A DNA stretch of 64,000 nucleotides. Source: Streptomyces sp. 71268. Its GTDB lineage: Bacteria; Actinomycetota; Actinomycetes; Streptomycetales; Streptomycetaceae. Position 1 is the first letter of the stretch; every line of letters starts with the position of its first letter. Below the pieces are notes generated by a model. It saw only the letters and a list, made by a program, of their open reading frames with translations, searched no databases and was not told the origin of the DNA. The stretch is taken from NCBI RefSeq assembly GCF_029392895.1, contig NZ_CP114200.1, positions 8,128,501 through 8,192,500 on the forward strand, read 5' to 3'. Made by a program: the position numbers and the translations under genes. Below are positions 4,803 to 51,746 of this stretch, one piece after another.

Positions 4803-4824
4803 GCCGACTCGACCGAACGCGGCG

Positions 4825-4868: not shown

Positions 4869-4895
4869 TCGCCAGCCGCCCGGCCACGGCGACGG

Positions 4896-4928: not shown

Positions 4929-4932
4929 CCGC

Positions 4933-9199: not shown

Positions 9200-9386
9200 G
9201 TCGTTACTATGCTCCCCGGCGGGCCCCCCGGTCCGCCGACGCCAGCGACGGCGCCAGGGGAGGAAGCCGGTGTGAGACCGGCGCGGTCCCGCCACTGTGA
9301 GTCCGGCAGCGATGCCGGACGAGCCAGGAACTCCTGCCGTCCTCCCACCCGCCCGGGGCGCGGACCCCGAGGAAGGCTGCTGCCGC
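9200..9386 (+). promoter_or_regulatory. Cobalamin (B12) riboswitch upstream of cobN
   Basis: The conserved core is clear: GGAAGCCGGTGTGAGACCGG near 9262-9281, then the B12 box GCCACTGTGA at 9291-9300, then GAGCCAGGAACTCCTGCC at about 9330-9348. The element ends shortly before the cobN ATG. In this family adenosylcobalamin binding represses expression of the downstream gene, usually by hiding the ribosome-binding site or promoting termination. The exact 5' limit is estimated. Confidence 0.93.
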
Positions 9387-31359: not shown

Positions 31360-32958
31360 CTACCGCGCCTGGTGCTCCGGCAAACCGGCCCCCCGGCAGG
31401 TGACGTCGGCGGCGGGGAGGTCGCCGGTGAGCAGGTACGTCGTCGTCGCGTGGTCCACGCACGGATTGCCCCGACTGGCGAAGACGCCGTGCGAGTAGTC
31501 GTCGCGCAGGGTGACCAGCCGCGCGCCCGGCAGTCGGGCCGCCAACCGCCGAGCCCCGGCCAGCGGGGTGACCGGGTCGTGCTCGCTGGCCACCAGCAGC
31601 GCCGAAGCCGCCCGCGGGCCGCCGAGCGGCGTGCGGTGGTGCGGCCGGTGGTGCCAGTACGCGCAGGCGCTGGCCTCCAGGCCGGTCACCAGCGGGTACG
31701 GGTCGAGCCGGCGCAGCCCGCGCAGGTCGGTGACCACCTCGCGCGGGCTCGGGCCCGGGCCGTCCGCGCACTTGACGACGCGGTTGGCCGCCTCGTAGTT
31801 GCGCGAGGCCGCGTCGCCGAACGGTGCCACGGGCCGCAGCTTGGCAACGTTGCCAGTGCGCAGGTAGTCGCGCAGCCCGTCGCCGAGCGGTGCCCAGCGC
31901 TCGGTGCGGCCGAGCGCCCGGTAGACGGCGCGGTCGAACTCGGCCGGGCCGAACCCGTCCACCGGGCGGGCCGCCAGTCGATCACGCGCCCGCGCGTACG
32001 CCGCCCGCACCTGGCCGGCACTCTCGCCGAGCCCGTACCGTCGCGGGTCGCCGGCCAGCCAGCCGAAGAGCACCTCACGCTGGCGCAGCAGCGCCGCGGC
32101 CTGTCGGACGTCGAAGTCGTGCCAATCCCACGGCCCGACAACGCTGTCCAGCACCATCCGGCCGGTGCGGTCGGGGAAGAGCGTCGCGTACGCCGCGCCC
32201 AGGTAGCTGCCGTAGGAGACGCCGAGGAAGTGCGTGCGGGGCTCGCCGAGCGCGGCGCGGATGGCGTCCATGTCGCGCGCCGTCGCCTCGGTGGACAGCG
32301 CGCCCAGCGCCGCCGGACCCGCGCCATCGGCGCAGTCCCCGGCCAGTTGGCGCAGCGCGGCCAGGTGGCGCCGCTCGCCGGCGGCGTCGGTCGGCAGCGG
32401 GTCGGTGCCCGGGCTCGCGAACAGGCCGCCCATCGGGCCGCAGTCGACGGGCGCGCTGCGCCCCACGCCGCGCGGGTCGAAGCCGACGACGTCGTACGCG
32501 CGACGCACCCGCTCCGGGAGCTTGGCGCGCTTGGTCACCGCATAGGGCAGTCCGGAGCCGCCCGGCCCGCCGGGGTTGACCAGCAGCGCGCCGCGCCGCT
32601 CGGCGGCGGTGCCCGAGGCGCGGACCCGGGAGACGGCGATGTCGAGCGTGGGCCCGGTGGGGCGGTTCCAGTTCAGCGGCACCCGCACCGTGCCGCACTC
32701 GACCCGCTCGCCGGGCGGCGGGGTCGGCAGCGAGGCGGGGCACGGGCCGAACTCGACGGCGGGGTGCGAGGCGGCGTGCGCGGACGGGGACGCCAGCGCT
32801 GATATCGGCGGTATGGGCGATATCGGCGGTATGAGCGCGGCGATGGCGGCGGCGAGCGCGGTCGTGGTGGCGGCGCGGCGGGGGCGTGACGTGGTGGTTC
32901 GGGCGGTCGTCGCGGCGGTCGGCGGCGCGGGTGTCGAGGTCGGGGTGGTGGATGGCAT
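31360..32958 (-). CDS. Secreted tripeptidyl aminopeptidase-like hydrolase
   Basis: A 532-residue alpha/beta-hydrolase-fold exopeptidase of the SlpD/SlpE/Tap type. An N-terminal signal peptide (hydrophobic core about 32-60, cleavage near AHA-AS) precedes the mature enzyme. Motifs are NPGGPGGSG (oxyanion hole), DPRGVGRS, the nucleophile elbow GVSYGSYLG, the acidic residue in SEHDPVTP and the C-terminal histidine in DDYSHGVFASRGNPC. It would cleave N-terminal peptides outside the cell. The start is divergent from the zincophore-like cluster, and the Zur-like box lies 46 bp upstream, so it may share zinc control. Confidence 0.9.
   Translation of the reverse strand: MPSTTPTSTPAPPTAATTARTTTSRPRRAATTTALAAAIAALIPPISPIPPISALASPSAHAASHPAVEFGPCPASLPTPPPGERVECGTVRVPLNWNRPTGPTLDIAVSRVRASGTAAERRGALLVNPGGPGGSGLPYAVTKRAKLPERVRRAYDVVGFDPRGVGRSAPVDCGPMGGLFASPGTDPLPTDAAGERRHLAALRQLAGDCADGAGPAALGALSTEATARDMDAIRAALGEPRTHFLGVSYGSYLGAAYATLFPDRTGRMVLDSVVGPWDWHDFDVRQAAALLRQREVLFGWLAGDPRRYGLGESAGQVRAAYARARDRLAARPVDGFGPAEFDRAVYRALGRTERWAPLGDGLRDYLRTGNVAKLRPVAPFGDAASRNYEAANRVVKCADGPGPSPREVVTDLRGLRRLDPYPLVTGLEASACAYWHHRPHHRTPLGGPRAASALLVASEHDPVTPLAGARRLAARLPGARLVTLRDDYSHGVFASRGNPCVDHATTTYLLTGDLPAADVTCRGAGLPEHQAR
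32801..32833. repeat. Tandem 18-bp repeat inside the signal peptide
   Basis: GATATCGGCGGTATG occurs twice with an 18-bp period and encodes a repeated P-P-I-S/P-I unit in the hydrophobic core of the peptidase signal sequence. Confidence 0.6.
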
Positions 32959-32996: not shown

Positions 32997-33025
32997 GTGA
33001 CAATGAAAATGATTATCGATAGCGT
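32997..33025 (+). promoter_or_regulatory. Promoter of the zincophore-like cluster
   Basis: GTGACA (32997-33002) and TAGCGT (33020-33025) are separated by exactly 17 bp. The expected start is about 80 bases before the first GTG. The spacer is occupied by the Zur-like box. Confidence 0.7.
33004..33018. promoter_or_regulatory. Zur-like zinc box
   Basis: TGAAAATGATTATCG matches 13 of 15 positions of the actinobacterial Zur consensus TGAAAATGATTTTCA as I know it, keeps the 7-1-7 dyad, and is strikingly AT-rich for this genome. It sits between -35 and -10, where a repressor would exclude RNA polymerase. DmdR/IdeR iron boxes look different (TTAGGTTAGGCTAACCTAA-like). Confidence 0.75.
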
Positions 33026-33111
33026 GTGCTCTTGGTCAACACGGTCCCGGCCGCCAGGGGGCTCCCCCTCGCGTGCCCGGACCCCCAAGTGCCCTGGCGA
33101 AAAGGAGAGTT

Positions 33112-34368
33112 GTGGGTCACCTTCTGATGATCGAAAGCTGGGTGGGGTCCATGAGCCGGCTGCTGCCGCGCGCCGTGCGGGAGAGCGGGCACGAGTTCAC
33201 GTTCCTCACCCGTGACCTGCACCACTACCTGCGCAGCGCCCCCGAGGGCGCCAGCCACCCGCTGCTCGGCGCGCGCAACGTCCTCACCCTGGACACCAAC
33301 GACACCCAGGCCCTGCTCCCACGGGTGGAGCGGCTGCACGCGGCGCTCGGTTTCGACGGGGTCATCACCTCGTGCGACTACTACCTGCCGGCCGTCGCCG
33401 AGGTCGCGGCCCGGCTCGGACTGCCCGGCGCGCCGCCCGGCGCCGTGGCGGACGCCTGCCGCAAGGACGCCACGCGGCGCGTGCTGCACGCCGCCGGGGT
33501 GCCGGGGCCACGGTTTTCCGTCTGCGACGACTGGGCCCAGGCCGCCGAGGCGGCCCGCGAGATCGGCTACCCGCTGGTCATCAAGCCGGTGGACCTGTGC
33601 GCCGGCATGTTCGTACGGCGCGTCGACGACGAGGGCGACCTCTCCCGCGCCTACCGGGCCCTCGCCGACTTCCCCGTCAACGCGCGCGGCCAGCGGCGCG
33701 CCCCGCAGGTGCTCCTCGAAGAACTCCTCGAAGGGCCCGAAGTCAGCGTCGAGACCGTCTCGTTCGACGGCAAGAGCCACGTCGTGGGCGTCACCGACAA
33801 GAGCATCGGCGGGGCGCCGGCGTTCATCGAGACGGGCCACATGTTCCCCGCCGCCCTCGACGCCGAGGCCACCACCGCCGCCGCGAGCACCGCCCAGGAC
33901 GCGCTGGCCGCGCTCGGCCTCGACCACGTCGTGGCACACACCGAGATCAAGCTCACCGCGCACGGCCCCCGGGTCGTGGAGGTCAACCCCCGGCCCGCCG
34001 GCAACCGCATCACCGAACTCGTACGCCACGTCACCGGCATCGACCTCGCCGCGGCCTTCGTGGACGTCGCCCTGGGCAACACGCCCGACCTCGCCGCCCG
34101 CGACACCGGCCTGACCAGCGCCGCCATCGGCTTCCTCGTACCGGAGACCGCGGGCGTCCTGGACGCCATCGAGGGCGCCGACGGCCTCGCCGAGCGCCCG
34201 GGCGTTCTGGAGGCCCAACTCGCCCAGCCGGGCACCACGGTCAAGGCGGCCGGCAGCAACAACGAGTACCTCGGCCACGTCATGGCCGCCGACCCCGCGG
34301 GCAGCGGCGCCCGCTCCCGGGTCGAGGAACTGCTCGCAGCGCTGCGCCCGCGGGTGGCCACCCGATGA
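33112..34368 (+). CDS. ATP-grasp carboxylate-amine ligase
   Basis: A 418-residue ATP-grasp enzyme, first gene of the Zur-box cluster. The N-terminal domain (about 1-110, IESWVGSMSRLLPRAVRESGH) resembles the substrate domain of BacD-like L-amino-acid ligases. The ATP-binding core has YPLVIKPVDLCAGMFVRRV, LLEELLEGPEVSVE and the Mg-binding EVNPRPAGNRI. Such enzymes activate a carboxylate as acyl phosphate and join it to an amine, typically making dipeptides or amino-acid amides. The GTG start has AAGGAG upstream. It overlaps the next gene as ATGA. It probably performs the main condensation step of an unknown small chelator. Confidence 0.88.
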   Translation: MGHLLMIESWVGSMSRLLPRAVRESGHEFTFLTRDLHHYLRSAPEGASHPLLGARNVLTLDTNDTQALLPRVERLHAALGFDGVITSCDYYLPAVAEVAARLGLPGAPPGAVADACRKDATRRVLHAAGVPGPRFSVCDDWAQAAEAAREIGYPLVIKPVDLCAGMFVRRVDDEGDLSRAYRALADFPVNARGQRRAPQVLLEELLEGPEVSVETVSFDGKSHVVGVTDKSIGGAPAFIETGHMFPAALDAEATTAAASTAQDALAALGLDHVVAHTEIKLTAHGPRVVEVNPRPAGNRITELVRHVTGIDLAAAFVDVALGNTPDLAARDTGLTSAAIGFLVPETAGVLDAIEGADGLAERPGVLEAQLAQPGTTVKAAGSNNEYLGHVMAADPAGSGARSRVEELLAALRPRVATR

Positions 34369-35189
34369 GCACCGCCCTCGGCGCCGCCACCGGGTACGCC
34401 GACCTGCTCCGCCGGGTACGGGCCGGCGAGTTCGGCCCCGACCCCGCGACCCAGCGGGTCTCCGTCGCCTTCAGCACCAGCCAGGCCGTACGCCACGAGG
34501 GCCGCGGCGGCGGATACCGCAACGAGGTGCTCAGCCTGCGCCTGGCCGAGGCCGTCGGCTCCTGCGCGGTGGAGCCGGGCGCGCTGCCGGCCGCCGCGCT
34601 CGACGACTGCGTCGGCGCCGACGTCGCCACCCTGCTCACCCACCCGCTGCCCGCCGTGCGGGTGGCCGCGCTCGACGCGTACCTGCTGCACGCCCTGCCG
34701 CACCACACGGCCGACGGCGCCCGCCCCTACCCGCTGCCCGCCGGCAGCTCGCTGCACAAGTCGCGGGCCCGCGCCCGCGCCGTCACCGCCCTCCTGGAGC
34801 CGGCCCGCCCCGAGCGGGTGCTGGTCATCGGCGTCGTCAACTCGCTGCTCGAGGCGTTGCGGGAGCGCGGCATCGGCTACCTGCCCTGCGACCTCAAGGG
34901 CGGCAGCACCGAGTGGGGCGAGCCCGTCAGCACGGACGCGGCGGCCGAACTGGAGCGCTGCGACGCCATCCTGGCCTCCGGCATGACGCTGGGCAACGGC
35001 ACCTTCGAGGAGCTGCGCGAACACGCCGCGCGCCACGACAAGCCCCTGGTGATGTTCGCCCAGACCGGCAGCGCCATCCTGCCCCGGCTGATCGGCGCGG
35101 GCGTCAGCGCCGTGTGCGCCGAGCCGTACCCGTTCTTCTGGCTCGACGGCGGCCCCGGCGTCATCTACCGCTACGGGGGGCCCTGTTGA
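34365..35189 (+). CDS. DUF364-type putative heavy-metal chelation protein
   Basis: A 274-residue protein of the Rossmann-like DUF364 family, with an N-terminal DUF4213-like domain (about 10-95). The C-terminal core shows RVLVIGVVNSLLEALRERG, ILASGMTLGNGTFEEL and VMFAQTGSAILPRLIGAG, as in proteins named putative heavy-metal chelation proteins. The biochemical activity of the family is not established. It is coupled by ATGA to the ligase gene and by TTGA to the PLP enzyme, so the three are surely made together. In this pathway it might bind the metal, the product or a nucleotide-activated intermediate. Confidence 0.82.
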   Translation: MSTALGAATGYADLLRRVRAGEFGPDPATQRVSVAFSTSQAVRHEGRGGGYRNEVLSLRLAEAVGSCAVEPGALPAAALDDCVGADVATLLTHPLPAVRVAALDAYLLHALPHHTADGARPYPLPAGSSLHKSRARARAVTALLEPARPERVLVIGVVNSLLEALRERGIGYLPCDLKGGSTEWGEPVSTDAAAELERCDAILASGMTLGNGTFEELREHAARHDKPLVMFAQTGSAILPRLIGAGVSAVCAEPYPFFWLDGGPGVIYRYGGPC

Positions 35190-36256
35190 CGACCACCGCG
35201 CTCGCACCCACCGCGAGCCACGAACTCCTCGCCCTGCTCGGCCGCACCCCGCTCGCCCGCGTCACCGCCCCGCTGCCCCATCCACACCCCGGCTTCTGGG
35301 CCAAGCTCGAAGGACTCGGCACCGGCGGCATGAAGGCGCGGGCCGCCGTCGCCATGTTGCTCGGCGCCCGGGAACGCGGCGAACTCGCGCCCGGCGCGCC
35401 CGTGGTGGAGTCCACGTCGGGCACCCTCGGCATCGGCCTGGCCTTTGCCGGGCAGGCGCTCGGCCACCCCGTGGTCCTCGTGTGCGACGACGAACTCGAA
35501 CCGTCCATGCGCCAGTTGCTGCGTGCCCACGGCGCCCGTCTGGAGATCGTCGAACACCCGGCGCCGCACGGCGGCTGGCAGGCCGCCCGCATCCGCCGGC
35601 TGCGCGAACTGCTCGCCGCGCTGCCCGGCGCGTACTGGCCCGACCAGTACAACAACCCCGACAACGTCGCCGGCTACGCCTCGCTCGCCGCCGAACTCGC
35701 CGTCCAACTCGACCACCTCGACATCCTGGTGTGCAGCGTGGGCACCGGCGGCCACAGCGCCGGCATCATCGGACCGCTGCGCCGCCACTGGCCGGCGCTG
35801 CGGCTGATCGGCGTGGACGCCACCGGCTCCACCATCTTCGGGCAGCCCGCCAGGGCGCGCCTGATGCGCGGCCTGGGCAGCAGCATCCACCCGCGCAACG
35901 TGGCCTACCACGCCTTCGACGAGGTGCACTGGGTGGGCCCGGCCGAGTCCGTCCACGCGTGCCGCCGGCTCGCCAGGTCCAGCTTCGTCAGCGGCGGCTG
36001 GAGCACCGGGGCCGTCGCGCTGGTCGCGGCGTGGGCGGCCCGCGTGCACCCGGGGGCCGTCGTCGCCACCGTCTTCCCCGACGGCCCGCACCGCTACCTC
36101 GGCAGCGTCTTCGACGACGCCTTCACCACGGCCCACGGCATCGACCCGGACCGCGCCGCCACCCGGCCCGTGGAGATACCGCACCCGCGCGCCGCGGAGG
36201 CCGCCGGGTGGGCGCGCTGCACCACGGTCATCGACCCCCTGGAGGGCACCCCATGA
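35186..36256 (+). CDS. Cysteine-synthase-like PLP enzyme
   Basis: A 356-residue fold-type II PLP enzyme. The PLP-binding lysine is in GGMKARAA (family: SVKDR). The substrate loop reads ESTSGTLGIGLAFAG where cysteine synthases have TSGNTGIGLA, so the usual asparagine is replaced. The phosphate loop is SVGTGGHSAGI. The C-terminal SSFVSGGWSTGA resembles the region that holds the pyridine-nitrogen contact. Related enzymes replace the beta substituent of O-acetyl- or O-phosphoserine with sulfur or nitrogen nucleophiles (CysK, SbnA). No SbnB partner is present. The TTG start overlaps the previous stop as TTGA, with a run of G as ribosome-binding site. Confidence 0.85.
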   Translation: MTTTALAPTASHELLALLGRTPLARVTAPLPHPHPGFWAKLEGLGTGGMKARAAVAMLLGARERGELAPGAPVVESTSGTLGIGLAFAGQALGHPVVLVCDDELEPSMRQLLRAHGARLEIVEHPAPHGGWQAARIRRLRELLAALPGAYWPDQYNNPDNVAGYASLAAELAVQLDHLDILVCSVGTGGHSAGIIGPLRRHWPALRLIGVDATGSTIFGQPARARLMRGLGSSIHPRNVAYHAFDEVHWVGPAESVHACRRLARSSFVSGGWSTGAVALVAAWAARVHPGAVVATVFPDGPHRYLGSVFDDAFTTAHGIDPDRAATRPVEIPHPRAAEAAGWARCTTVIDPLEGTP

Positions 36257-37344
36257 AGACCACCCTGCGCACCGTCCGGCTCCGGCTCGCCGAACCCCTG
36301 CGCATCTCACGCTCGGTGATGGACGCCCGCGACGCGGTGTGGCTGACCATCGAGCACCGTGGCCTGCGCGGCCACGGCGAGGTGGTGGCCAGCGTCTACT
36401 TCGGCCTCGACGCCGACACCATCGGGCACCTGCTGACCGACGCCGGGCTCGACCTCGCCCGCCACCCCGATCCGGAGTCCGCGCTCGGCGCCCTGCGCGC
36501 CGGCGAGCTGCCCGCCGACGGGACGCCGCCCGCCGTGGTCGCCGCGGTCGAGGCGGCCCTGCTCGACCTCGTGGGCAAGCGCGCCGGGGCCCCGGCCCAC
36601 CACCTGATCGGCACGCTCACCCCGCCGGCCGCCGCGACCGCCCGCACCATCGGCATCACCTCCGCCGTCAGCGCGGCCGTACGCGCCCGGTGCCTGGCCG
36701 ACAGCGGGTTCCGCACCATCAAGGTCAAGGTGGGCGCGGCCGACCCGGAGGCCGACCTGGAGCGGGTGCGCGTCATCCGGGCCGAGGCCCCGGGGCCGCG
36801 CCTGCTGCTCGACCCCAACGGGGCCTGGACGGTGGACGAGACGCGCGCGCTGCTGCCCCGGTACGCCGAACTCGGCGTCGAGGCCGTCGAACAGCCCATC
36901 GCCCCCGGCACCCCGGACGCCCTCGCGGCCATCGCCGCCGAGTCGCCTCTGCCGATCATCGCCGACGAGGACGCGGTCAGCATCGAGGACGTGCGCCGCC
37001 TGGCCGGGCGGGTCCAGGGCGTCAACGTCAAGCTCGCCAAGTGCGGTGGCGTACACGCGGCGCTGCGCATCGGCGAACTCATCGCCGGCACCGGCACCTC
37101 GCTCATGCTCGGCTGCCTCACCGCCAGCTCCCTGGGCATCGCGCCCGCCGTACACCTGGCCGACCGGGCCCGCTGGGTGGATCTGGACGGACACCTCCTG
37201 CTCGCGCACGACCCGTGGACGGGCATCGGCGGCACCGACGGCACCGTCCGCGCCAGCGCCCACGCCGGCCTGGGCGTACGCCCCGCGCGCCCGGCCGCGC
37301 CCGAGCCCCGCCCGGCCCAGGCGCCACCCCGACTCCGCACGTGA
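36253..37344 (+). CDS. Dipeptide-epimerase-like enolase-superfamily enzyme
   Basis: A 363-residue enolase-superfamily enzyme of the muconate-lactonising subgroup. It keeps the K-x-K pair (K157, K159 in TIKVKVG), the metal ligands D187 (LLLDPNGAW), E213 (VEQPI) and D238 (IIADED), and the opposite lysine near 260-263 (VKLAKCGG). This two-base arrangement fits 1,1-proton transfer, as in L-Ala-D/L-Glu epimerase and other dipeptide or N-acylamino-acid racemases. Next to an ATP-grasp ligase, a dipeptide or amide intermediate is a natural substrate. It overlaps the PLP gene by ATGA. A stem-loop lies just after it. Confidence 0.88.
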   Translation: MKTTLRTVRLRLAEPLRISRSVMDARDAVWLTIEHRGLRGHGEVVASVYFGLDADTIGHLLTDAGLDLARHPDPESALGALRAGELPADGTPPAVVAAVEAALLDLVGKRAGAPAHHLIGTLTPPAAATARTIGITSAVSAAVRARCLADSGFRTIKVKVGAADPEADLERVRVIRAEAPGPRLLLDPNGAWTVDETRALLPRYAELGVEAVEQPIAPGTPDALAAIAAESPLPIIADEDAVSIEDVRRLAGRVQGVNVKLAKCGGVHAALRIGELIAGTGTSLMLGCLTASSLGIAPAVHLADRARWVDLDGHLLLAHDPWTGIGGTDGTVRASAHAGLGVRPARPAAPEPRPAQAPPRLRT

Positions 37345-37753
37345 CGGGCCGGCCGCCGGCCGGTGGTCCCACCCGCGCCGGCGGCCGGACGGGACCGGAC
37401 GAGGCGGCGCGCGGCGCGGCGGCCGACCCGGCGGTACGCGGCGCGGTGCGCGGCCGCCGGCCGGCACGGAACCCGTTCACCCGCGCCGCATGACGCCCGG
37501 CCGTGCCCGGCCCGGAGCCACCGGCACGCGAACCCGCCCCGGCCGGAGCGGGTTCGGCCGCGCGGCGGTGGCGTGCGAGACGGCGTACGAGCGGCGCGTC
37601 GCGGCCCGCCGTCGCACAGCCGCGTGGACCCGCCGCGCCCGGCGACCAGGGGTGCCGGCGGCCGGCCCGACCCGGCCCCATCCGCCTCGTACCAACGAGC
37701 CACACAGCCCGCGCGCCCCGTGAACCCACCCCCACCAAGGAAGAGAGCCTGCC
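37345..37753. other. Intergenic region between epimerase and MFS genes
   Basis: A 409-bp gap inside the cluster. Apart from the hairpin at its left end I see no gene with normal coding character, no second Zur box and no clear promoter. The MFS ribosome-binding site (AAGGAAGAGAG) is at its right end. Read-through or an unseen promoter must serve the downstream genes. Confidence 0.5.
37351..37386 (+). terminator. Stem-loop after the epimerase gene
   Basis: GGCCGCCGG pairs with CCGGCGGCC, with an inner GGTGG/CCACC pairing. It is seven bases past the epimerase stop and could attenuate transcription into the exporter genes. Confidence 0.65.
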
Positions 37754-39268
37754 GTGAAGACCTGGCGCGAGATGCGCGGATTCCCGCTGGCCATCCGCCT
37801 CCTGCTGGTCAACCAGCTCGGCGTGAACACCGGCTTCTACCTGCTCATCCCCTACCTCGCCACGCACCTCAGCGAGGACCTCGGGATGTCCGCCGCGGTG
37901 GTCGGCATCGTGCTGGGCGTGCGCAACCTCAGCCAACAGGGGCTGTTCATCATCGGCGGGTCGGCCGCCGACCGGCTCGGCGCCCGTGGCGTGATCATCG
38001 CCGGTTGTGGGCTGCGCACGCTGGGGTTCGCGCTGTTCGCGCTCGGCGACGGGCTGCCGGTGCTGCTGGCCGCCTCCGTGCTGAGTGGGCTGGCGGGCGC
38101 GTTGTTCAACCCGGCCGTACGCGCCTACCTGGCCCAGGAGGCGGGGGAGCGGAAGGCGGAGGCGTTCGCGCTGTTCAACGTCTTCGCCACCACCGGCGCG
38201 CTGGTCGGGCCGCTGCTCGGCAGCGCCCTGCTACTGGTCGACTTCCGCGCCTCGGCGCTCACCGCCGCCGCCATCTTCGCGCTGCTCACCGCCGCCCAGG
38301 CGGTGGTGCTCCCCGCCCGCCCGGTGCCGCCGGCCCGAACCAGCGTGCTCGGCGACTGGCGCGAGGTCGTCTCGCACCGCGCCTTCCTCGCCTTCTCGCT
38401 CGCCATGGTCGGCATGTTCGCCATGGAGAACCAGCTCTACCTGCTGCTGCCCGACGCCGCGCGGCGCGCCAGCGGCTGGGAGGGCGCGGCGGGGCTGGTC
38501 TTCCTCGTCGGCACGGTCGCCAACCTGGCCCTGCAGATGCGCGTCACCGGGCGGCTCGGGCAGCGGGGCGCCCGGCCCCGCTGGATCGCCCTCGGGCTGG
38601 CCGTGATGAGCCTGGGGTTCGTGCCACCGCTCCTGGTGGCCGGTCGGGGCGCGCCCGACGGCGCGCTGGCGGCGGGCCTGGCGCTGCTGCCGGTGCTCGC
38701 CGGGGCGCTGCTGCTCTACCTCGGCGCCATGATGGCGCAGCCGTTCGTGATGGAGCTGATACCGGGGTTCGGCCGCGCCCACCTGACCGGCACCTACTTC
38801 GGCGTCTTCTACGTCGTCTCCGGCATCGCGGCGGCCCTGGGCAACACGGCCGTCGGCTGGGCGATGGACGCCGGCGAACGGGGCGGGGCGCACTGGCTGC
38901 CCTGGGTGTGCTGTCTCGGCTTCGGCCTCGCGTCGGCCAGCGGCGTGGCCTGGCTGCACCGGCTGCGCGCCCTGCCCACCCCCGGCGGCGCGCCCGTCGC
39001 CGAGCCACCCGACGCCACCCGCGCGAAACGCCCCGCCGCCCCACCCGCCGTCCCGTACCCGCAACGGCCCGCCGACCAGGTCGTGCCCCGCGCCGACCGG
39101 GCCGACGCGCCGACCCCGGCCCACCGACCCGCCGCCGACCCGGCCACCACGGCCCCGGCCGCGCCCACTCCGGCCCGGCGATCCGCCACCCGCGCCCACC
39201 CCGCGGCCGCCGCCGCGAGGCGACGCGCCGCCGGCACCAGCGACGACCCGACGGGAGCAGCCCGATGA
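37754..39268 (+). CDS. MFS exporter
   Basis: A 504-residue major-facilitator protein with about 12 transmembrane helices (residues 12-410). The motif-A-like loop is GGSAADRLGARGVIIAG, and the N-terminal half starts IRLLLVNQLGVNTGFYLL. It belongs to the drug-exporter-type group used by metallophore and antibiotic loci. The last 85 residues or so are a proline/threonine/alanine-rich, probably disordered cytoplasmic tail, which is unusual for the family. GTG start. It overlaps the methyltransferase as ATGA. Its likely role here is export of the cluster's product. Confidence 0.88.
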   Translation: MKTWREMRGFPLAIRLLLVNQLGVNTGFYLLIPYLATHLSEDLGMSAAVVGIVLGVRNLSQQGLFIIGGSAADRLGARGVIIAGCGLRTLGFALFALGDGLPVLLAASVLSGLAGALFNPAVRAYLAQEAGERKAEAFALFNVFATTGALVGPLLGSALLLVDFRASALTAAAIFALLTAAQAVVLPARPVPPARTSVLGDWREVVSHRAFLAFSLAMVGMFAMENQLYLLLPDAARRASGWEGAAGLVFLVGTVANLALQMRVTGRLGQRGARPRWIALGLAVMSLGFVPPLLVAGRGAPDGALAAGLALLPVLAGALLLYLGAMMAQPFVMELIPGFGRAHLTGTYFGVFYVVSGIAAALGNTAVGWAMDAGERGGAHWLPWVCCLGFGLASASGVAWLHRLRALPTPGGAPVAEPPDATRAKRPAAPPAVPYPQRPADQVVPRADRADAPTPAHRPAADPATTAPAAPTPARRSATRAHPAAAAARRRAAGTSDDPTGAAR

Positions 39269-40239
39269 CCGACGCCACCACGACACACCCACCCGCAGAC
39301 CACCCTCCCACCGACCACCACACAGCCGACCATCCGTCAGACGCCGGCCTGCCCACCGGCTCCACCCCGCCCGGGCCACAGTCGCCGGCGCCCCGCACGA
39401 CCACCCCCGACCCGGCGACCAGCGACCCCGCCCCGCCCGCGCAGGCCCCGGACAGCGGCAACCTGCTCACCGACAACCCCGAGCTGTACGAGGCGCGCTT
39501 TCCCGACCCGCACGCCCTCGCGGCCCGCTGGGTGGAGGCGACCCTACGGGCGTACGGCGCCGGGCCGCGCGTCCTCGACCTCGGCTGCGGCACCGGACGG
39601 GACGCGGCCCACCTGCACGCCGCGGGCCGCCGCGTCGTGGGGGCCGACCTGTCCCAGGCGATGCTGACGCACGCCAGGCGGCACTACCCCGGGCCCACCT
39701 ACGTCACCGCCGACCTGCGCGGATTCGACTTCGGACCGGGCGCCTTCGACGCGATCACCTGCCTGGACAGCGCCCTGCTGTACTGCCACACCGGCGACGA
39801 ACTCGACGGACTGCTCGCCTCCTGTCGGCACGCGCTCGCCCCCGGCGGGCTGCTCGTGGCCGAGCTGCGCAACGGGGCGTTCTTCCTGGGCAACACCGAA
39901 CTCCTGGACGCCCCGACGCGCTCCACCCTGACCTGGCAGGGCGTCAGCTACACCGCGCTCACCACGCTCTGGCTCGACCGCGCCGCCCAACTGTTGCGCC
40001 GGCGCCGGGTGTGGACCTCGGACGACGGTTCGCCGCCCGTCACCCAGCACTCCGCGTGGCGGCTGCTGTTCCCGCAGGAGCTGCGCCACCTGCTGGCCGC
40101 GCACGGCTTCCGCGTACGGGAGCTGCACGACGGGCCTGGACCGCGTACCGAGCCCGCGTGGCACGAGGACGCGCCGCCGCCGCGCGGCACGGCCGACGAC
40201 GACCGGCTGCACCTGGTCGCCGAGCGCCTGGCCGACTAG
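39265..40239 (+). CDS. SAM-dependent methyltransferase
   Basis: A 324-residue class I methyltransferase. A 60-residue N-terminal extension is threonine/proline/histidine-rich and probably disordered. The folded part has VLDLGCGTGRDAAHL (motif I), VVGADLSQAML (motif II) and FDAITCLDSALLY (motif post-I/IV), and ends with a beta strand RLHLVAERLAD. It resembles small-molecule N- or O-methyltransferases of the methyltransferase_25/11 type. It is coupled to the MFS gene; the disordered exporter tail and this N-terminal extension form one continuous low-complexity DNA stretch across the junction. It probably modifies the chelator. Confidence 0.86.
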   Translation: MTDATTTHPPADHPPTDHHTADHPSDAGLPTGSTPPGPQSPAPRTTTPDPATSDPAPPAQAPDSGNLLTDNPELYEARFPDPHALAARWVEATLRAYGAGPRVLDLGCGTGRDAAHLHAAGRRVVGADLSQAMLTHARRHYPGPTYVTADLRGFDFGPGAFDAITCLDSALLYCHTGDELDGLLASCRHALAPGGLLVAELRNGAFFLGNTELLDAPTRSTLTWQGVSYTALTTLWLDRAAQLLRRRRVWTSDDGSPPVTQHSAWRLLFPQELRHLLAAHGFRVRELHDGPGPRTEPAWHEDAPPPRGTADDDRLHLVAERLAD

Positions 40240-40336
40240 CGCCCGCCGCCCGCTCGCCCCCGGCGCGGCCATGCCGTCGCCGCACCGCCAGCCGCCCCCC
40301 ACGTTCCGCACCCGTTCCCCGTACAAGGAGTCTCCC

Positions 40337-41923
40337 GTGACCGCATCCGCTCACCCCGACCGCGCCTTTCCCGCTCTGCGGCGGCGCGGGTTCCTCGCCG
40401 CCGGCGCCGCGGCCGGCCTCGGCGCCCTCGCCCTGACCGGCTGTGGCGGCGGCGCCGAGGACGCCGGCGCCGCCGGCGGGGACGGCAAGCCCCGGCGCGG
40501 CGGCCGGCTGCGCGCGGCGTTCGCCGGTGGCGGCGCGGCCGAGACGCTCGACCCGCACCTGAGCAACCTGTTCGCCGACGCCGCCCGCGCCAAGGCCCTC
40601 TACGACAAGCTCGCCGACTGCGGGGCCGACATGTCGGCCAAGCCCCGCCTAGCCGCCTCCTGGGAGCCGGGCCCCCGGCTCGACCGCTGGAAGGTCACCC
40701 TGCGCGAGGCCACCTTCCACGACGGCAGGCCGGTCACCGCCGACGACGTGCTCTACAGCTACCGCCGCATCGCCGACCCGCGAAAGACCTACCGGGCCAA
40801 GGCGTCCCTGGAGCCCATCGACCTGAAGGCGAGCCGCGCCCTGGACGCGCGCACCGTCGAGTTCCGCCTCAAGCGCCCCACCGCCGAGTTCCCCAACGTG
40901 CTGGCCGCGTTCGGCGCGTACGTCATACCCCGCGACACCGAGCGGTTCGACCGGCCGATCGGCTCCGGCCCCTTCCGCTTCGTCTCCTTCACCCCCGGCC
41001 GCTCGTGCGCCGTGCGCCGCTACGACGACTACTGGGACGGCGCCCCCTACCTGGACGAGCTGGAGTTCGTCATCGCCAACGAGGAGTCCGCGCGGATCAA
41101 CGCGCTGCTCGGCGGGCAGGTCGAGTACGCGCACGAGCTCAACCCCGCCACCGCGCGCGCCCACGAGAACCGGGGCCAGATCGCCATCGTGCGACTGCGC
41201 AACAGCGCCATGCAGGCGTTCGCGATGAAGACCGACCGCGCGCCGTTCGACGACCCGCGGGTGCGCCAGGCGTTCTTCCTCATCGCCGACCGCCAGGAAC
41301 TGGTGGACGGCGCGCTGTCGGGGGCCGGCGAGATCGGCAACGACCTGTTCGGCAAGGGCTACCAGTACTACGCGGCCGACCTGCCGCAGCGCGCACAGGA
41401 CCTGGACCGGGCCCGACACCTGCTCAAGCAGGCCGGCGCCGAGGACCTGCGGGTCACCCTGGACACCTCCGAGGTGGCCGCCGGATTCACCGAGGCCGCC
41501 GGCATCTTCCGCGACCAGGCGGCCAAGGCCGGCGTCACCGTCAAGGTCAGGTCCGGCAGCAAGGACACCTACTGGAGCGACGTCCTGAACTCCGGCACCC
41601 TGTGCTGCTACCGCTCGGGCGCCATGCCCATCGAGTCGCACATCTCACAGCGGCTGCTCACCGACTCCTCCACCAACGCCACCCACTGGCGCCACCGCGA
41701 CTTCGACGCCCAGTACCAGCAGGCCCAGTCCACCAGGGACCCGCGGGCCCGCGCCGCCGTCTACGAGCGCATGCAGCGCCGCCTGCACACCGAGGGCGGC
41801 TTCCTGGTGTGGGGCTTCGCCGACTGGATCGTCGGCACCACCAGGAAGGTGGCCGGCGTGCGCTCCGGCGCGCCCGCCAACACCCTGGACTGGGCCCGCT
41901 TCGACAAGGTGTGGCTGCGGTGA
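40337..41923 (+). CDS. ABC substrate-binding lipoprotein (family 5, Opp/Nik-type)
   Basis: A 528-residue solute-binding protein of family 5 (peptide/nickel/opine). A twin-arginine-like, lipoprotein signal is seen: RRRGFLAAG then LALTGCGGG with the lipidated cysteine. The mature protein shows LDPHLSNLF, ATFHDGRPVTADDVLYSYRRI, PIGSGPFRFV and the C-terminal GFADWIVG. Relatives include OppA, NikA and CntA, the last binding metal-staphylopine. AAGGAG lies six bases before the GTG. It heads a complete importer (four genes, all with four-base overlaps). In the cluster's context it likely captures the metal-loaded product. Confidence 0.9.
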   Translation: MTASAHPDRAFPALRRRGFLAAGAAAGLGALALTGCGGGAEDAGAAGGDGKPRRGGRLRAAFAGGGAAETLDPHLSNLFADAARAKALYDKLADCGADMSAKPRLAASWEPGPRLDRWKVTLREATFHDGRPVTADDVLYSYRRIADPRKTYRAKASLEPIDLKASRALDARTVEFRLKRPTAEFPNVLAAFGAYVIPRDTERFDRPIGSGPFRFVSFTPGRSCAVRRYDDYWDGAPYLDELEFVIANEESARINALLGGQVEYAHELNPATARAHENRGQIAIVRLRNSAMQAFAMKTDRAPFDDPRVRQAFFLIADRQELVDGALSGAGEIGNDLFGKGYQYYAADLPQRAQDLDRARHLLKQAGAEDLRVTLDTSEVAAGFTEAAGIFRDQAAKAGVTVKVRSGSKDTYWSDVLNSGTLCCYRSGAMPIESHISQRLLTDSSTNATHWRHRDFDAQYQQAQSTRDPRARAAVYERMQRRLHTEGGFLVWGFADWIVGTTRKVAGVRSGAPANTLDWARFDKVWLR

Positions 41924-42873
41924 GATCGCTCCGCTCCTGGCTCGCCCGACGGCTGCTGCTCGGCCTCGTGCAGACCGTGGCCGTGGTGCTGCTGGTCTTC
42001 GCGCTCACCGAGGCGCTGCCGGGCGACGCCGCTGTCGCGCTGGCCGGCGACGACCCGGACCCGCGACGCATCGAGCGGATCCGCGCGGCGATGGACCTCG
42101 ACCGGCCCGCCCTTGAGCGGTTGGCGGACTGGACCGGCGGGCTGCTCCGCGGCGACTTCGGCACCTCGCTGGCGTCCGGCCGACCCGTCGCCGACTACCT
42201 CTCCGCCGGCTTCGGGCCCACGCTGGTGCTCGCGGCACTCACGGTGGCGCTGCTGGTCCCGATCTCGGTCGGGCTCGGCGTGCTCGCCGCCCGCCGCGAG
42301 GGCGGCGCCCTGGACCGGCTCATCAGCTCGGTGACGCTCGGCGTGTACGCGGTGCCGGAGTTCGCCTTCGGCGTGCTCCTGGTCACCGTCTTCGCGCTGC
42401 GCCTGGACTGGCTGCCACCGACCGCCGTCGGCTACGGCACCGACCTGCTGGCCCACCCCGCCGTGCTGGTGCTGCCGGTCCTCGTACTGCTGTCGCGACC
42501 GGTGTGCTCCATCAGCCGACTGGTCCGCGCCGGCATGATCGACGCGCTGGCCGCCCCGTACGCCGCGCAGGCCCGCCGCTACGGGGTGAGCGGGGCCCGC
42601 GTGTGCTACGCCCACGCGCTGCCCAACGCCGTGGCGCCCGCGGCCCAGCAACTGGCCCGCACCGTCGACTGGTTGCTGTGCGGCGTCATCGTCGTGGAGG
42701 CGCTGTTCGTCATCCCCGGGCTCGGCACGGTGCTCATCGACGCGGTCGCCGCCCGCGACGTGCCGGTGGTACAGGGCCTCGCGGTGATCTTCGGCCTGCT
42801 CGCGGTGGTGCTCAACCTCGCCGCCGACCTGGTCGCGCACCGCTTCGCCCCGCGTACGGGGGTAGCCGCGTGA
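41920..42873 (+). CDS. ABC permease (OppB/NikB-type)
   Basis: A 317-residue DppB/OppB-like permease with six transmembrane helices. It begins RRLLLGLVQTVAVVLLVFALTEALPGDAA and keeps the EAA-loop region YAAQARRYGVSGARVCYAHALPNAVAP and the C-terminal LFVIPGLGTVLIDAV. Its GTG overlaps the binding-protein stop as GTGA. It pairs with the next permease. Confidence 0.92.
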   Translation: MRSLRSWLARRLLLGLVQTVAVVLLVFALTEALPGDAAVALAGDDPDPRRIERIRAAMDLDRPALERLADWTGGLLRGDFGTSLASGRPVADYLSAGFGPTLVLAALTVALLVPISVGLGVLAARREGGALDRLISSVTLGVYAVPEFAFGVLLVTVFALRLDWLPPTAVGYGTDLLAHPAVLVLPVLVLLSRPVCSISRLVRAGMIDALAAPYAAQARRYGVSGARVCYAHALPNAVAPAAQQLARTVDWLLCGVIVVEALFVIPGLGTVLIDAVAARDVPVVQGLAVIFGLLAVVLNLAADLVAHRFAPRTGVAA

Positions 42874-43886
42874 ACCCGACCGATCCCCGCACCCCGGGTG
42901 CCCCGACCGCCCCCACCACCGCACATGCCAGCACCCCACCGGAGCCGACGCCCGGCGCGCCGCGCCGGCGCCGGCCCGCGCCCGGCAGGTTCGCGCTCGG
43001 CCTGCTCGTCCTCGCCCCGCCGCTGCTGCTCGCCCTGTTCGGGCCGCTGTTCGCGGGCGAGGCGGGGGAGCGGGGCGTGTCCTTCACCGCCGGCGACGGG
43101 CACTGGCTCGGCACCGACTTCGTCGGCCGCGACGTGTGGCGACAGGTGCTGCTCGGCGGCCACTCGGTGGTGCTCGTCGCGCTGTCGGCGACGCTCCTGT
43201 CCTACGTCGTCGCCCTGCCGGTCGGCCTCACCGCGGCGCTGACCCGCCGTGGCTGGCTGGAGGAGGCGCTGATGCGCCCGCTGGACGTGCTGCTCGCCGT
43301 GCCGTCGCTGCTCCTCGTGTTGCTTGTCGCCGCCGTCTACAGCCCGGGCACGCTGGGCCTGGTGCTGCTGGTGGCGCTGGTCAACATCCCGGACGCGGCC
43401 CGCATGGTCCGCGCGTCGGCGGCGGAGGCGGCCTCCCGCCCGGCCGTGGAGGCGCTGCGGATGCAGGGCGAGAGCTGGTGGCGGATCGCGGTGGGCTACG
43501 TCGGCCGCGCCACCCGGCGCACCCTGGTCGCCGACGCGGGCGTGCGCCTGACGGGCGTGCTGTACCTGGTGGCCACCGCCGCGTTCCTCGGCGTGGGCGT
43601 CGCGCCCGACGCCGCCGACTGGGCCGTCATGGTCGACCGCAACCGCACCGGTCTCTTCCTCCAGCCGTGGGCGGTGGTGGTACCCGCGCTGCTGATCGTG
43701 GGCCTGTCGATGGGCACCAACCTGCTCTTCGACGCCGCCCTCGCGCCCCGGGCCGACCGCCCGGCCCGCCCCCGCCCAGCCCGGCGCCGCCTGGCCCGCC
43801 CGCGCGCGGGCGCCCCGGCCGAGGGCCGCCCCGGGGCCACCCGGCGCTCCGCGCGCCCCACCCAAGGAGAGGAGAAGCACCGGTGA
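42870..43886 (+). CDS. ABC permease (OppC/NikC-type)
   Basis: A 338-residue DppC/OppC-like permease. An N-terminal proline-rich cytoplasmic stretch (about 1-38) precedes the first helix; then HWLGTDFVGRDVWRQVLLGG is the family's periplasmic signature, followed by five helices with the EAA-like MQGESWWRIAVGYVGRATR. The C terminus is arginine/proline-rich. GTG start overlapping the previous stop. Confidence 0.92.
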   Translation: MNPTDPRTPGAPTAPTTAHASTPPEPTPGAPRRRRPAPGRFALGLLVLAPPLLLALFGPLFAGEAGERGVSFTAGDGHWLGTDFVGRDVWRQVLLGGHSVVLVALSATLLSYVVALPVGLTAALTRRGWLEEALMRPLDVLLAVPSLLLVLLVAAVYSPGTLGLVLLVALVNIPDAARMVRASAAEAASRPAVEALRMQGESWWRIAVGYVGRATRRTLVADAGVRLTGVLYLVATAAFLGVGVAPDAADWAVMVDRNRTGLFLQPWAVVVPALLIVGLSMGTNLLFDAALAPRADRPARPRPARRRLARPRAGAPAEGRPGATRRSARPTQGEEKHR

Positions 43887-45538
43887 ACGCCGACGTGCGG
43901 GCCGTCGCCGAAGTGCGGGACCTGCGGATCGAGGTGGCGGGCCGGGCCCTGGTGGACGGCGTGAGCCTGCGCGCCCGGCCGGGCCGGGTGACCGCGCTGG
44001 TCGGCGCCTCCGGCAGTGGCAAGACCACCACTGGCCTGGCCCTGCTCGGCAGTTACCCGGCGGGCGCCGTCGTCAGCGGCGAGATACGGGTCGCCGACGG
44101 GCTCGCCGGCTACGTGCCCCAACACCCGGCGGCCGTGCTCAACCCGGCCCGGCGCGTGGGCGCGCTGCTCACCGACATCGCCCGCCGTCAGGTGCGCGAG
44201 CTGCCGCGCGGGCGGCGGCGGGCCGCCGCCCGCGAGCGGGTGCTCAGCGCGTTGGCCGCGGCCCACGTCGCCGACGGCCCGGAGACCGTCGAGCGCTACC
44301 CGCACCAGCTCTCGGGCGGACAGCAACAGCGCGTCGTACTGGCCCAGGCGCTCCTGCTCGGCGCGCGCGTCATCGTCGCCGACGAGCCCACCACGGGGCA
44401 GGACGCGCTGACCAAGCGCCGGGTGGTGGCCGAACTCGCGGCCGTGGCCCAGCGCGGCATCGCGCTCGTCCTGCTCAGCCACGACCTGGAGGTGGTGCGC
44501 GAACTGGCCGACGACATCCTGGTGTTGCGCGCCGGCCAGGTCGTCGAGGAGGGCCCAGCCGACCGACTCCTGACCGACCCGCGACACCCGTGGACCCGAC
44601 AGCTCCTGGCCCCGCCGCCGACCCCCGCCCACGGCCACCCGCGCGCCGCGCCACCCACCGCCCGCGCGGACACGGACGACGCGGGCCCGCGCCGCGCGTC
44701 CCCGCCCTGCGCCGAGGGCCTGGTCGTACGGGGACTCACCGCGCGGCACCGCGCCGGCGGGCGCCGGGGCGGGGTCGCCGTCGTACACGGCGCCGACCTC
44801 GCCGTGGCCCCGGGGGAGTCCCTGGCCCTGGTCGGCCGGTCCGGCAGCGGCAAGACCACGCTGGCCCGCTGCGTGGCCGGGCTGCACCGGGACTTCGCGG
44901 GCCGGGTACTCCTGGACGGCGCGGAGCTGCCGCGTAGCCTGCGGGACCGTACCCGGGCCGAACTGGCCGCCGTGCAGTACGTGTTCCAGGACGCCCGGGC
45001 CGCCTTCGACGCGTACCGGCCCGTGCTCGACCAGGTGGCCCGCACGGCGGTGCGGCTGCGCGGGGCCACGCCCGGCGCGGCGCGCGAGCAGGCCACGACG
45101 ACGCTCGCCGCCACCGGTCTGAGCGAGGAGCTGGCCGCGCGCCGGCCGGAACAACTCTCCGGCGGGGAGTTGCAGCGCGCGGCGCTGGCCCGGGCCCTGC
45201 TCGCCCGGCCGCGGGTGCTGCTGTGCGACGAGGTCACCTCGGGGCTCGACGCCGTCACCCGGCACGGCATCCTGCGCCTGCTCGCCACGCTGCTGCGCAA
45301 CCGAGGGGACCTGGCGCTGGTCCTGATCACGCACGACCTGGAGACGGCCGCGCTCGCCCACCGCGTGGCCGTGCTCGACGCGGGCGAGATCGTCGAGCAG
45401 GGCACGGCCCACCAGGTCCTCACGGCGCCGCGCCACCCCTTCACAGCCTCGCTCGTAACCGCGAGCCAGCCGTACGCGCCCGGCGCTGGCGGCGAGGCCG
45501 ACGACACCGTCGTCGCGGACCAGCCGGCGCCGCCGTAG
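43883..45538 (+). CDS. Fused dual ABC ATPase (OppD-OppF-type)
   Basis: A 551-residue protein with two complete nucleotide-binding domains, so one gene replaces OppD and OppF. The first half has Walker A GASGSGKTT, signature LSGGQQQR and Walker B VIVADEPTTG. The second has GRSGSGKTT, LSGGELQR and VLLCDEVTSG. A linker of about 50 residues joins them. Its GTG, after AAGGAGAGGAG, overlaps the OppC-type stop. It energises import of the cluster's ligand. No downstream gene belongs to this operon. Confidence 0.93.
   Translation: MNADVRAVAEVRDLRIEVAGRALVDGVSLRARPGRVTALVGASGSGKTTTGLALLGSYPAGAVVSGEIRVADGLAGYVPQHPAAVLNPARRVGALLTDIARRQVRELPRGRRRAAARERVLSALAAAHVADGPETVERYPHQLSGGQQQRVVLAQALLLGARVIVADEPTTGQDALTKRRVVAELAAVAQRGIALVLLSHDLEVVRELADDILVLRAGQVVEEGPADRLLTDPRHPWTRQLLAPPPTPAHGHPRAAPPTARADTDDAGPRRASPPCAEGLVVRGLTARHRAGGRRGGVAVVHGADLAVAPGESLALVGRSGSGKTTLARCVAGLHRDFAGRVLLDGAELPRSLRDRTRAELAAVQYVFQDARAAFDAYRPVLDQVARTAVRLRGATPGAAREQATTTLAATGLSEELAARRPEQLSGGELQRAALARALLARPRVLLCDEVTSGLDAVTRHGILRLLATLLRNRGDLALVLITHDLETAALAHRVAVLDAGEIVEQGTAHQVLTAPRHPFTASLVTASQPYAPGAGGEADDTVVADQPAPP

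Positions 45539-49217: not shown

Positions 49218-51746
<2,529 letters not shown>

What the first reader, a model, noticed from the sequence alone, without database searches (positions are those of the whole stretch)
33004..45538. Candidate undescribed Zur-controlled metallophore system without NRPS genes
Ten same-strand genes behind a Zur-like box combine synthesis (ATP-grasp ligase, cysteine-synthase-like PLP enzyme, dipeptide-epimerase-like enolase, methyltransferase, DUF364 protein), export (MFS) and re-import (family 5 binding lipoprotein, two permeases, fused ATPase). This make-export-reimport logic is that of staphylopine-type metallophores, but the chemistry is different: no nicotianamine-synthase-like gene, opine dehydrogenase, NIS synthetase or NRPS is present. 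Known zinc-controlled actinomycete chelators that I can name are coelibactin (NRPS) and [S,S]-EDDS; I cannot say how close this cluster is to the EDDS genes. Function as a zincophore is inference from the box and the transporter class.
Basis: partly seen in the sequence, partly recalled or inferred. Interest (0 to 1): 0.92.

Follow-up and report, generated by a model that had tools for sequence, protein, structure and literature searches.

The report
Zinc-scavenging chelator operon without NRPS
A soil bacterium of the Streptomyces type carries a ten-gene operon that very probably makes, exports and takes back a small zinc-grabbing molecule when zinc is scarce, using an enzyme set that matches none of the known kinds of metal scavenger we could test.

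Summary
In detail: ten same-strand genes (33112-45538) follow a Zur-like box (33004-33018) lying between a putative -35 and -10. DUF364 homologues at 63% identity or more (type A) occur in 40 of 150 Streptomyces genomes, the window's included. Of 24 type A loci fetched, 23 keep all ten genes in order and 22 keep the box within 3 mismatches, 60-156 nt upstream. A second operon family (type B; DUF364 at 37-43%; 27 of 150 genomes) shares the PLP enzyme, DUF364 and an MFS gene (13 of 13 loci read), mostly with a FecCD-type importer. It carries Zur-like boxes too: 10 of 13 within 3 mismatches, 13 of 13 within 4. Type A and B PLP enzymes form one clade (100/99) apart from SbnB-linked SbnA.

The operon encodes no nicotianamine synthase, opine dehydrogenase, SbnB, NIS synthetase or NRPS. 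Best reading: an NRPS-independent zincophore system with a new biosynthetic core, working like staphylopine systems without belonging to them. Product, metal and Zur binding are inferred. The EDDS genes were not retrieved, so that comparison is open.

The parts
33004..33018 (+). Zur-box-like 7-1-7 palindrome TGAAAATGATTATCG
   Evidence: within 3 mismatches in 22 of 24 type A loci; most conserved island upstream
32997..33025 (+). Putative promoter: -35 GTGACA 32997-33002, 17-nt spacer that holds the box, -10 TAGCGT 33020-33025
   Evidence: read; TGACAA before the box in 17 of 24 loci and TANNNT after it in 22 of 24; not flagged by the stricter consensus scan
33012..33039 (-). Putative divergent promoter TTGACC-16-GATAAT overlapping the box, for the hydrolase gene
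   Evidence: its -35 (5 or 6 of 6 letters) kept in 14 of 14 loci with the hydrolase and 3 of 10 without
31360..32958 (-). Alpha/beta-hydrolase with TAP-like C-terminal domain, probable co-regulated partner
   Evidence: divergent neighbour in 14 of 24 loci
33112..34368 (+). ATP-grasp ligase with L-amino acid ligase C-domain (LAL_C2)
   Evidence: best solved match L-amino acid ligase BL00235
34365..35189 (+). DUF364 protein, core enzyme of unknown reaction
   Evidence: 27.9 bits, cut-off 23; model with mean pLDDT 92
35186..36256 (+). SbnA-related PLP enzyme (PALP), SGN motif changed to SGT; start TTG 35186
36253..37344 (+). Enolase-superfamily, dipeptide-epimerase-like protein
   Evidence: K157, K159, D187, E213, D238, K263 and D310-x-D312 invariant in 28 of 28 rows
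37754..39268 (+). MFS exporter
   Evidence: direction of transport inferred
39265..40239 (+). SAM-dependent methyltransferase
40271..41923 (+). Family 5 solute-binding lipoprotein
   Evidence: lipobox LTGC
41920..42873 (+). ABC permease (Nik/Opp type)
42870..43886 (+). ABC permease (Nik/Opp type)
43883..45538 (+). Fused ABC ATPase, last gene of the conserved unit
   Evidence: no common gene follows it in eight downstream stretches

Best explanation
An NRPS-independent zincophore operon. Shown: gene content, conserved order, conserved box. Inferred: with enough zinc, Zn-Zur sits on 33004-33018 inside the promoter spacer and blocks RNA polymerase; in zinc starvation the ten genes are transcribed together. 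The SbnA-derived PLP enzyme couples an activated serine-type amino acid to an amine (beta-replacement) to give a poly-amino-carboxylate core, and DUF364 acts on that core. The ATP-grasp ligase adds an amino acid by an amide bond, the epimerase inverts one residue and the methyltransferase methylates. The MFS protein exports the chelator, the lipoprotein catches its zinc complex and the Nik/Opp-type ABC transporter brings it back. The data make a Zur-linked make-export-reimport unit likely; order of steps and structure of the product are guesses.
For: Box within 3 mismatches in 22 of 24 type A loci, against 17 such sites in the whole 8.38 Mb genome; box the most conserved upstream island. Gene order conserved in 23 of 24 fetched Streptomyces loci and in L183, L185, L192. 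Type B operons with the same PLP/DUF364 core carry Zur-like boxes: 10 of 13 Streptomyces loci within 3 mismatches, 13 of 13 within 4; 12 of 12 loci from other genera within 3; 67 of 80 named loci (some repeat genomes already counted). Controls: SbnB-family loci, 0 of 100 short loci, 0 of 19 longer stretches (L139 left out), 1 of 9 further stretches. No iron-type (DmdR) box within 5 mismatches in the 13 type B stretches scanned (the operon start of L059 lay outside that scan). DUF364 with a PLP gene in 62 of 62 full-length named type B loci. Types A and B meet in 1 of 150 genomes where 7.2 is expected (P = 0.0012, relatedness not corrected), as for alternatives of one function. Importer classes as in opine-like zincophores (PMC7438024). 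Ka/Ks well below 1 for all ten genes.
Against: No experiment. The box has 2 mismatches and an imperfect right arm. Three of 27 type A loci lack a good box: L083 (5 mismatches), L095 (4), L183 (none within 3). G307 (L083/L217) keeps only the first five genes, and the binding-protein match of L095 falls in two pieces. The binding protein's best solved matches are opine, peptide and nickel binders and do not point to zinc; the ATPase comes close to a nickel model (296 against 318.7 bits). The own genome has a related PLP-ATP-grasp-MFS-methyltransferase locus with no DUF364, no importer gene like those of type A or B and no box within 3 mismatches, so part of this enzyme set also serves something else. 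EDDS genes not compared.
Confidence: 0.74

Rival explanations
1. It is a member or close variant of the aminopolycarboxylic-acid metallophores ([S,S]-EDDS, EDHA), so the kind is already known.
For: EDDS is Zur-controlled in an actinomycete (PMC9252823, PMC6103462, passages) and the PLP enzyme is related to SbnA.
Against: No SbnB partner in the operon; the SbnA equivalog cut-off is missed (243.5 against 350 bits); PLP enzyme in a clade apart from 15 SbnB-linked SbnA; the two over-cut-off SbnB genes of the own genome lie elsewhere, next to NRPS genes and without box. That EDDS and EDHA need an SbnB-like partner is recalled, not tested.
Confidence: 0.13
2. It is a metallophore for another divalent metal (nickel, cobalt, copper) that happens to be under Zur.
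For: Binding protein, permeases and ATPase score best or near best against nickel-type models, the ATPase close to the NikD cut-off (296 against 318.7 bits); zincophores carry other metals too (PMC7438024).
Against: All these models stay below their cut-offs. The operator is Zur-like and the genome's other best site lies at the zinc transporter locus.
Confidence: 0.09
3. The enzymes make a dipeptide-like antibiotic or signal; the importer scavenges peptides and the box is incidental.
For: L-amino acid ligase, epimerase and MFS fit a dipeptide natural product. A related locus without importer or box exists in the same genome.
Against: Importer, exporter and enzymes stay together in 23 of 24 fetched loci and the box in 22 of 24; a second operon type links the same core to Zur-like boxes.
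Confidence: 0.05

Closest known systems
Opine-like zincophores (staphylopine, pseudopaline, bacillopaline, yersinopine)
   Same: Make-export-reimport operon; dipeptide/oligopeptide-type importer (type A) or FecCD-type importer (most of type B), the two importer classes described for opine-like zincophores, with MFS export in some actinomycetes (PMC7438024, passages)
   Different: No nicotianamine-synthase-like CntL and no opine dehydrogenase CntM; instead PLP enzyme, DUF364, ATP-grasp ligase, epimerase, methyltransferase
[S,S]-EDDS and EDHA aminopolycarboxylic-acid metallophores
   Same: Actinomycete chelators; EDDS is Zur-controlled (PMC9252823, passages); their use of SbnA-like enzymes and lack of NRPS is recalled
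Coelibactin
   Same: Zur-controlled putative zincophore of Streptomyces (PMC6103462, PMC12161575, passages)
   Different: Non-ribosomally synthesised peptide (start of abstract of PMC3430247, listing)
Staphyloferrin B SbnA / Dap synthases
   Same: Best solved match of the PLP enzyme is SbnA
   Different: SGN motif is SGT in type A (9 of 9) and SGI in type B (12 of 12), against N in 13 and S in 2 of 15 SbnB-linked enzymes
DUF364 protein Dhaf4260 (PDB 3l5o)
   Same: Pfam family PF04016; a role in metal chelation was proposed in 2010 from structure and genome context (PMC2954201, passages)
   Different: The window protein matches no solved chain by sequence up to E = 1; the passages seen name no Zur link and no Streptomyces operon

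Membership tests
Opine-like zincophore | Nicotianamine-synthase-like CntL | tested here: not met
   No such Pfam or NCBIfam match in the ten proteins
Opine-like zincophore | Opine dehydrogenase CntM | tested here: not met
Opine-like zincophore | Exporter plus dipeptide-type or FecCD-type importer in the operon | tested here: met
   description of the class in PMC7438024 (passages)
NRP metallophore | NRPS genes in the cluster | tested here: not met
   No NRPS domain in the ten proteins
NIS siderophore | IucA/IucC synthetase | tested here: not met
Aminopolycarboxylic-acid metallophore (EDDS, EDHA) | SbnB-like partner of the SbnA enzyme (feature recalled) | tested here: not met
   Absent from the ten proteins; own SbnB genes lie elsewhere
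Aminopolycarboxylic-acid metallophore (EDDS, EDHA) | Homology of the enzymes to the EDDS or EDHA genes | not testable with these tools
   Loci not retrieved; papers not held
SbnA equivalog (TIGR03945) | Score over the curated cut-off | tested here: not met
   243.5 against 349.95 bits
SbnA / cysteine synthase | PLP lysine and SGN motif (roles recalled) | tested here: inconclusive
   Lysine motif kept in 26 of 27 rows; SGN is SGT
DUF364 (PF04016) | Score over Pfam's cut-off | tested here: met
   27.9 against 23 bits
Dipeptide epimerase | KxK and K catalytic lysines, three metal ligands, DxD motif (meaning recalled) | tested here: met
   Invariant in 28 of 28 rows
Dipeptide epimerase | Score over a curated equivalog cut-off | tested here: not met
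   Best 212 against 400 bits, DgcA
Zur regulon | Zur box at the promoter, conserved | tested here: met
Zur regulon | Zinc-dependent Zur binding and zinc-responsive transcripts | not testable with these tools
   Needs experiment

The most novel reading that the evidence does not exclude
A two-branch actinomycete family of NRPS-independent zincophores defined by a PLP enzyme (SGN changed to SGT or SGI) plus DUF364, under Zur, present in nearly half of the Streptomyces genomes sampled; DUF364 would thereby get its first physiological role, as an enzyme of zinc-chelator synthesis, and the type A product would be a ligase-built, epimerised, methylated dipeptide-like chelator of new structure.
Probability: 0.55. 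Interest if true: 0.86.

Novelty: new variant of a known kind. Interest (0 to 1): 0.76.

Why it matters
The actinomycete zinc chelators named in the papers seen here are coelibactin and EDDS (PMC6103462), besides gene clusters predicted for opine-like zincophores (PMC7438024). A PLP/DUF364 core, found next to Zur-like boxes in nearly all loci read and judged by DUF364 present in 66 of 150 Streptomyces genomes, and also in Amycolatopsis, Prauserella, Actinophytocola and Actinopolymorpha, would be a common extra route that rules keyed to known enzymes may not name. It gives a direct test for the function of DUF364, for which a chelation role was proposed in 2010 (PMC2954201), and a genomic signature (PLP SGT/SGI + DUF364 + Zur box) for finding new chelators.

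Tried and rejected
Considered and rejected: exporter gene 45662-47623 as part of the system (a close homologue follows only in the sister strain L216 among 8 downstream stretches); control by the iron regulator DmdR in type B (best site in 13 scanned stretches has 6 mismatches); membership in the opine, NIS and NRP classes. The two over-cut-off SbnB genes of the own genome lie in other loci (L129, L130) beside NRPS genes.

Led nowhere: the search for the EDDS locus through SbnB in 6 genomes behind named loci, 19 genomes of the genus of G805 and 297 of its family, with nine stretches read and 100 SbnB-family loci scanned for Zur-like boxes (0 of 100). The first gene caller placed genes wrongly in this GC-rich DNA and was replaced. 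L139 was fetched among the SbnB stretches by mistake: it is part of a type B locus and is left out of that control. The structure of DUF364 was predicted but could not be compared with known folds. Two rows of the Ka/Ks table (SBP of L080, MFS of L089) had a stop inside the aligned stretch, not followed up. L183 dropped out of the PLP tree, which therefore has 9 type A rows; the tree tool warned of long branches. Possible link of type B to the S. coelicolor SCO0472-0476 Zur locus: SCO0475 responds to zinc chelation and an SCO0476 orthologue was tested in S. roseosporus (PMC4726154, passage and legend), and S. filamentosus has a type B locus (L255), but whether these are the same genes was not settled.

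Literature searches for a prior description: (30 of 167 listed; 20 of 2,169; 25 of 170; 15 of 15; none found; 7 of 7; 25 of 1,147; 6 of 6; 20 of 38), 106 (8 of 15). No title or abstract start in those listings describes a Zur-linked DUF364 or PLP/ATP-grasp metallophore operon; the library is open-access only. Kallifidas 2010, Spohn 2016 and Spohn 2018 are not held. All papers cited were seen as passages found by terms, PMC3430247 as a listing.

Full report
What is there. The window lies at 8128501-8192500 of an 8.38 Mb single-contig genome of Streptomyces type; the DUF364 protein is 96% identical to one named Streptomyces buecherae. Ten genes run on the + strand from 33112 to 45538. Seven of nine junctions overlap by 4 nt, and the epimerase-MFS junction has a 409-nt spacer. 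Pfam and NCBIfam give: ATP-grasp with L-amino acid ligase C-domain; DUF364; PALP, best NCBIfam model SbnA; enolase superfamily, best solved matches dipeptide epimerases and muconate-cycloisomerase-like proteins; MFS; methyltransferase; family 5 binding lipoprotein; two Nik/Opp permeases; fused ABC ATPase. No NAS-like, opine dehydrogenase, IucA/IucC, SbnB or NRPS match appears among them.

The box. TGAAAATGATTATCG at 33004-33018 has 2 mismatches to the palindrome used as query, and no shuffle of the window gave a match. By my reading it has one mismatch to the S. coelicolor ChIP-chip motif (PMC5472717, passages). Genome-wide 17 distinct sites lie within 3 mismatches and three within 2, none closer; the reversed control pattern gave 3 matches against 21. 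Of the other two 2-mismatch sites, one is the promoter of a zinc ABC transporter locus whose best family models are zinc transporters, all below cut-off, followed by a Fur-family gene. The other (8312050) was not followed up. In the upstream alignment the box sits between a -35-like GTGACA (32997-33002) and a -10-like TAGCGT (33020-33025) with a 17-nt spacer; TGACAA precedes the box in 17 of 24 loci and TANNNT follows in 22 of 24. The stricter scan does not report this pair. It reports a divergent promoter on the other strand overlapping the box (33039-33012), which would serve the alpha/beta-hydrolase gene 31360-32958. That gene is the divergent neighbour in 14 of 24 loci. Its -35 is kept in 14 of 14 of these and in 3 of 10 without the gene (Fisher P = 0.0003, relatedness not corrected).

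Conservation of the unit (type A). DUF364 at 63% identity or more occurs in 40 of 150 Streptomyces genomes, the own one included. I fetched 24 of the other 39 loci. All ten genes are present in the same order in 23 of 24; one of these (L079) is completed by a second stretch (L216), and in L095 the binding-protein match falls in two pieces. The exception, G307, has only the first five genes and a 5-mismatch box, and is the one genome with both types. The box is within 2 mismatches in 11 loci and 3 in another 11, with 4 in L095 and 5 in L083. In 20 of the 22 it lies 104-119 nt upstream of the ligase gene, in the other two 60 and 156. Box columns average 0.92 conservation against 0.60 for the other aligned upstream columns. 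Past the ATPase no gene is common to the eight downstream stretches read; L214 and L215 share their neighbours, and the window's exporter gene recurs only in the sister strain L216. Three further type A loci, two of them from other families, keep the ten-gene order; two of these three have a box within 3 mismatches. Ka/Ks is 0.08-0.52 for all genes in three comparisons. Outside Streptomyces the protein is uncommon: 5 of 296 genomes of the phylum matched the single sequence.

A second operon type (type B). DUF364 at 37-43% identity occurs in 27 of 150 genomes, G307 among them. I read 13 of these loci (L059-L071). All 13 have an SbnA-like PLP gene, and all 13 an MFS gene like those of L062 or L063. 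FecCD, ABC and Peripla_BP_2 genes occur in 11 of 13; L059 instead has a family 5 binding protein, permeases and ATPase 44-50% identical to those of the window; no importer was recognised in L060. GHMP-kinase-like genes occur in 11 of 13; methyltransferase-like or PhyH genes in L059, L060, L061. Zur-like boxes lie at the operon start in 10 of 13 within 3 mismatches and 13 of 13 within 4. In a class-wide sample 34 of 394 genomes match the DUF364 profile, 30 strongly, 15 of these outside the genus. I read 14 of those 15: 2 are type A and 12 type B, and all 12 type B have a box within 3 mismatches, one of them perfect. A scan of named genomes kept the best 80 of 214 relatives: Streptomyces, three Amycolatopsis, one each of Prauserella, Actinophytocola and Actinopolymorpha. 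Some repeat genomes already read. Of these 80, 67 have a box within 3 mismatches and 52 within 2; of the 13 without, seven are shortened by contig ends. Controls: SbnB-family loci, 0 of 100 short loci, 0 of 19 stretches of 10-20 kb, 1 of 9. In 62 of 62 full-length named loci DUF364 is accompanied by the PLP gene.

The PLP enzyme. In a tree of 41 proteins, type A (9) and type B (12, plus own-genome paralogue L199) form a clade with support 100/99, apart from 15 SbnB-linked SbnA and four other own-genome PALP paralogues; branches are long and the tool warns of this. The SGN motif is SGT in type A (9 of 9) and SGI in type B (12 of 12), but N in 13 and S in 2 of 15 SbnB-linked enzymes. This points to changed chemistry; which, is not shown.

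How it probably works. Inference from families: de-repression by zinc loss; the PLP enzyme builds an N-substituted diaminopropionate-like core from an activated serine (SbnA chemistry, recalled); DUF364 modifies it. A 2010 structure paper put the DUF364 active site between two domains and suggested condensation or hydrolysis in making metal chelators (PMC2954201, passages). The ligase and epimerase pair makes and inverts a dipeptide-like bond; the catalytic residues and the D310-x-D312 motif are invariant in 28 of 28 rows. An ATP-grasp ligase plus a dipeptide epimerase has been used in place of an NRPS in an engineered route (PMC13338154, passages). Then methylation, MFS export, capture by the lipoprotein, ABC uptake. 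The two importer classes seen, dipeptide/oligopeptide-type and FecCD-type, are the two described for opine-like zincophores. There the dipeptide-type class generally goes with a histidine racemase, as type A goes with an epimerase (PMC7438024, passages). That parallel may be chance.

Against. There is no experiment. Three of 27 type A loci lack a good box. The own genome carries a PLP-ATP-grasp-MFS-methyltransferase locus, with a gene 34% like GHMP kinase of type B but without a Pfam match, and with no DUF364, no importer like those of type A or B and no box within 3 mismatches. So the ligase and PLP enzymes are also used for something else. The binding protein does not point to zinc, and the transporter leans to nickel-type models, all below cut-off. 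EDDS and EDHA genes could not be compared. EDHA is an 11-kb cluster, scab_5231 to scab_5311, missed by the antiSMASH analysis of that study (PMC8914351, passages).

Verdict. It works like a staphylopine-type system but is not one by enzyme content. Filed as a new variant of a known kind, with a reasonable chance that the PLP/DUF364 core defines a separate zincophore class. The claim that it is undescribed rests on the listings in an open-access library.

Noticed in passing
window 9260-9333 (+) and 2542-13034: Cobalamin riboswitch (Rfam RF00174) just upstream of a CobN gene (9387-13034), with CbiD-type (2542-3681) and fused CobI/CobJ-type (4933-6534) genes on the other strand: a cobalamin biosynthesis locus.
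   Followed up: partly
L203 8950-14010 (G000:C1:1824950-1830010): A related own-genome locus with type-B-like PLP, ATP-grasp, MFS and methyltransferase genes and a gene 34% like type B GHMP kinase (no Pfam match), but no DUF364, recognised importer or Zur box: perhaps a different natural product from the same enzyme stock.
   Followed up: partly
L060 3713-4921 and 5870-6139: An S-adenosylmethionine synthetase gene lies divergently beside a type B operon with two 1-mismatch Zur-like boxes between them and the operon.
   Followed up: no
L083/L217 (G307): The one genome with both operon types keeps only the first five type A genes, without methyltransferase and importer, and a degenerate box: possible decay or importer sharing.
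   Followed up: partly
L011 (G000:C1:8312050): The third 2-mismatch Zur-like site of the own genome, near unassigned genes.
   Followed up: no
L088, about 1695 nt upstream of the ligase gene: A 1-mismatch Zur-like site on the far side of the hydrolase gene.
   Followed up: no
window 37345-37753: A 409-nt spacer between epimerase and MFS genes; a similar spacing is seen in the sister strain L079.
   Followed up: no
window 47823-48740 (-) and 49218-51746 (+): An aminoglycoside/hydroxyurea-kinase-like gene and a UvrA-like ABC protein follow the operon and its exporter neighbour (coordinates).
   Followed up: no
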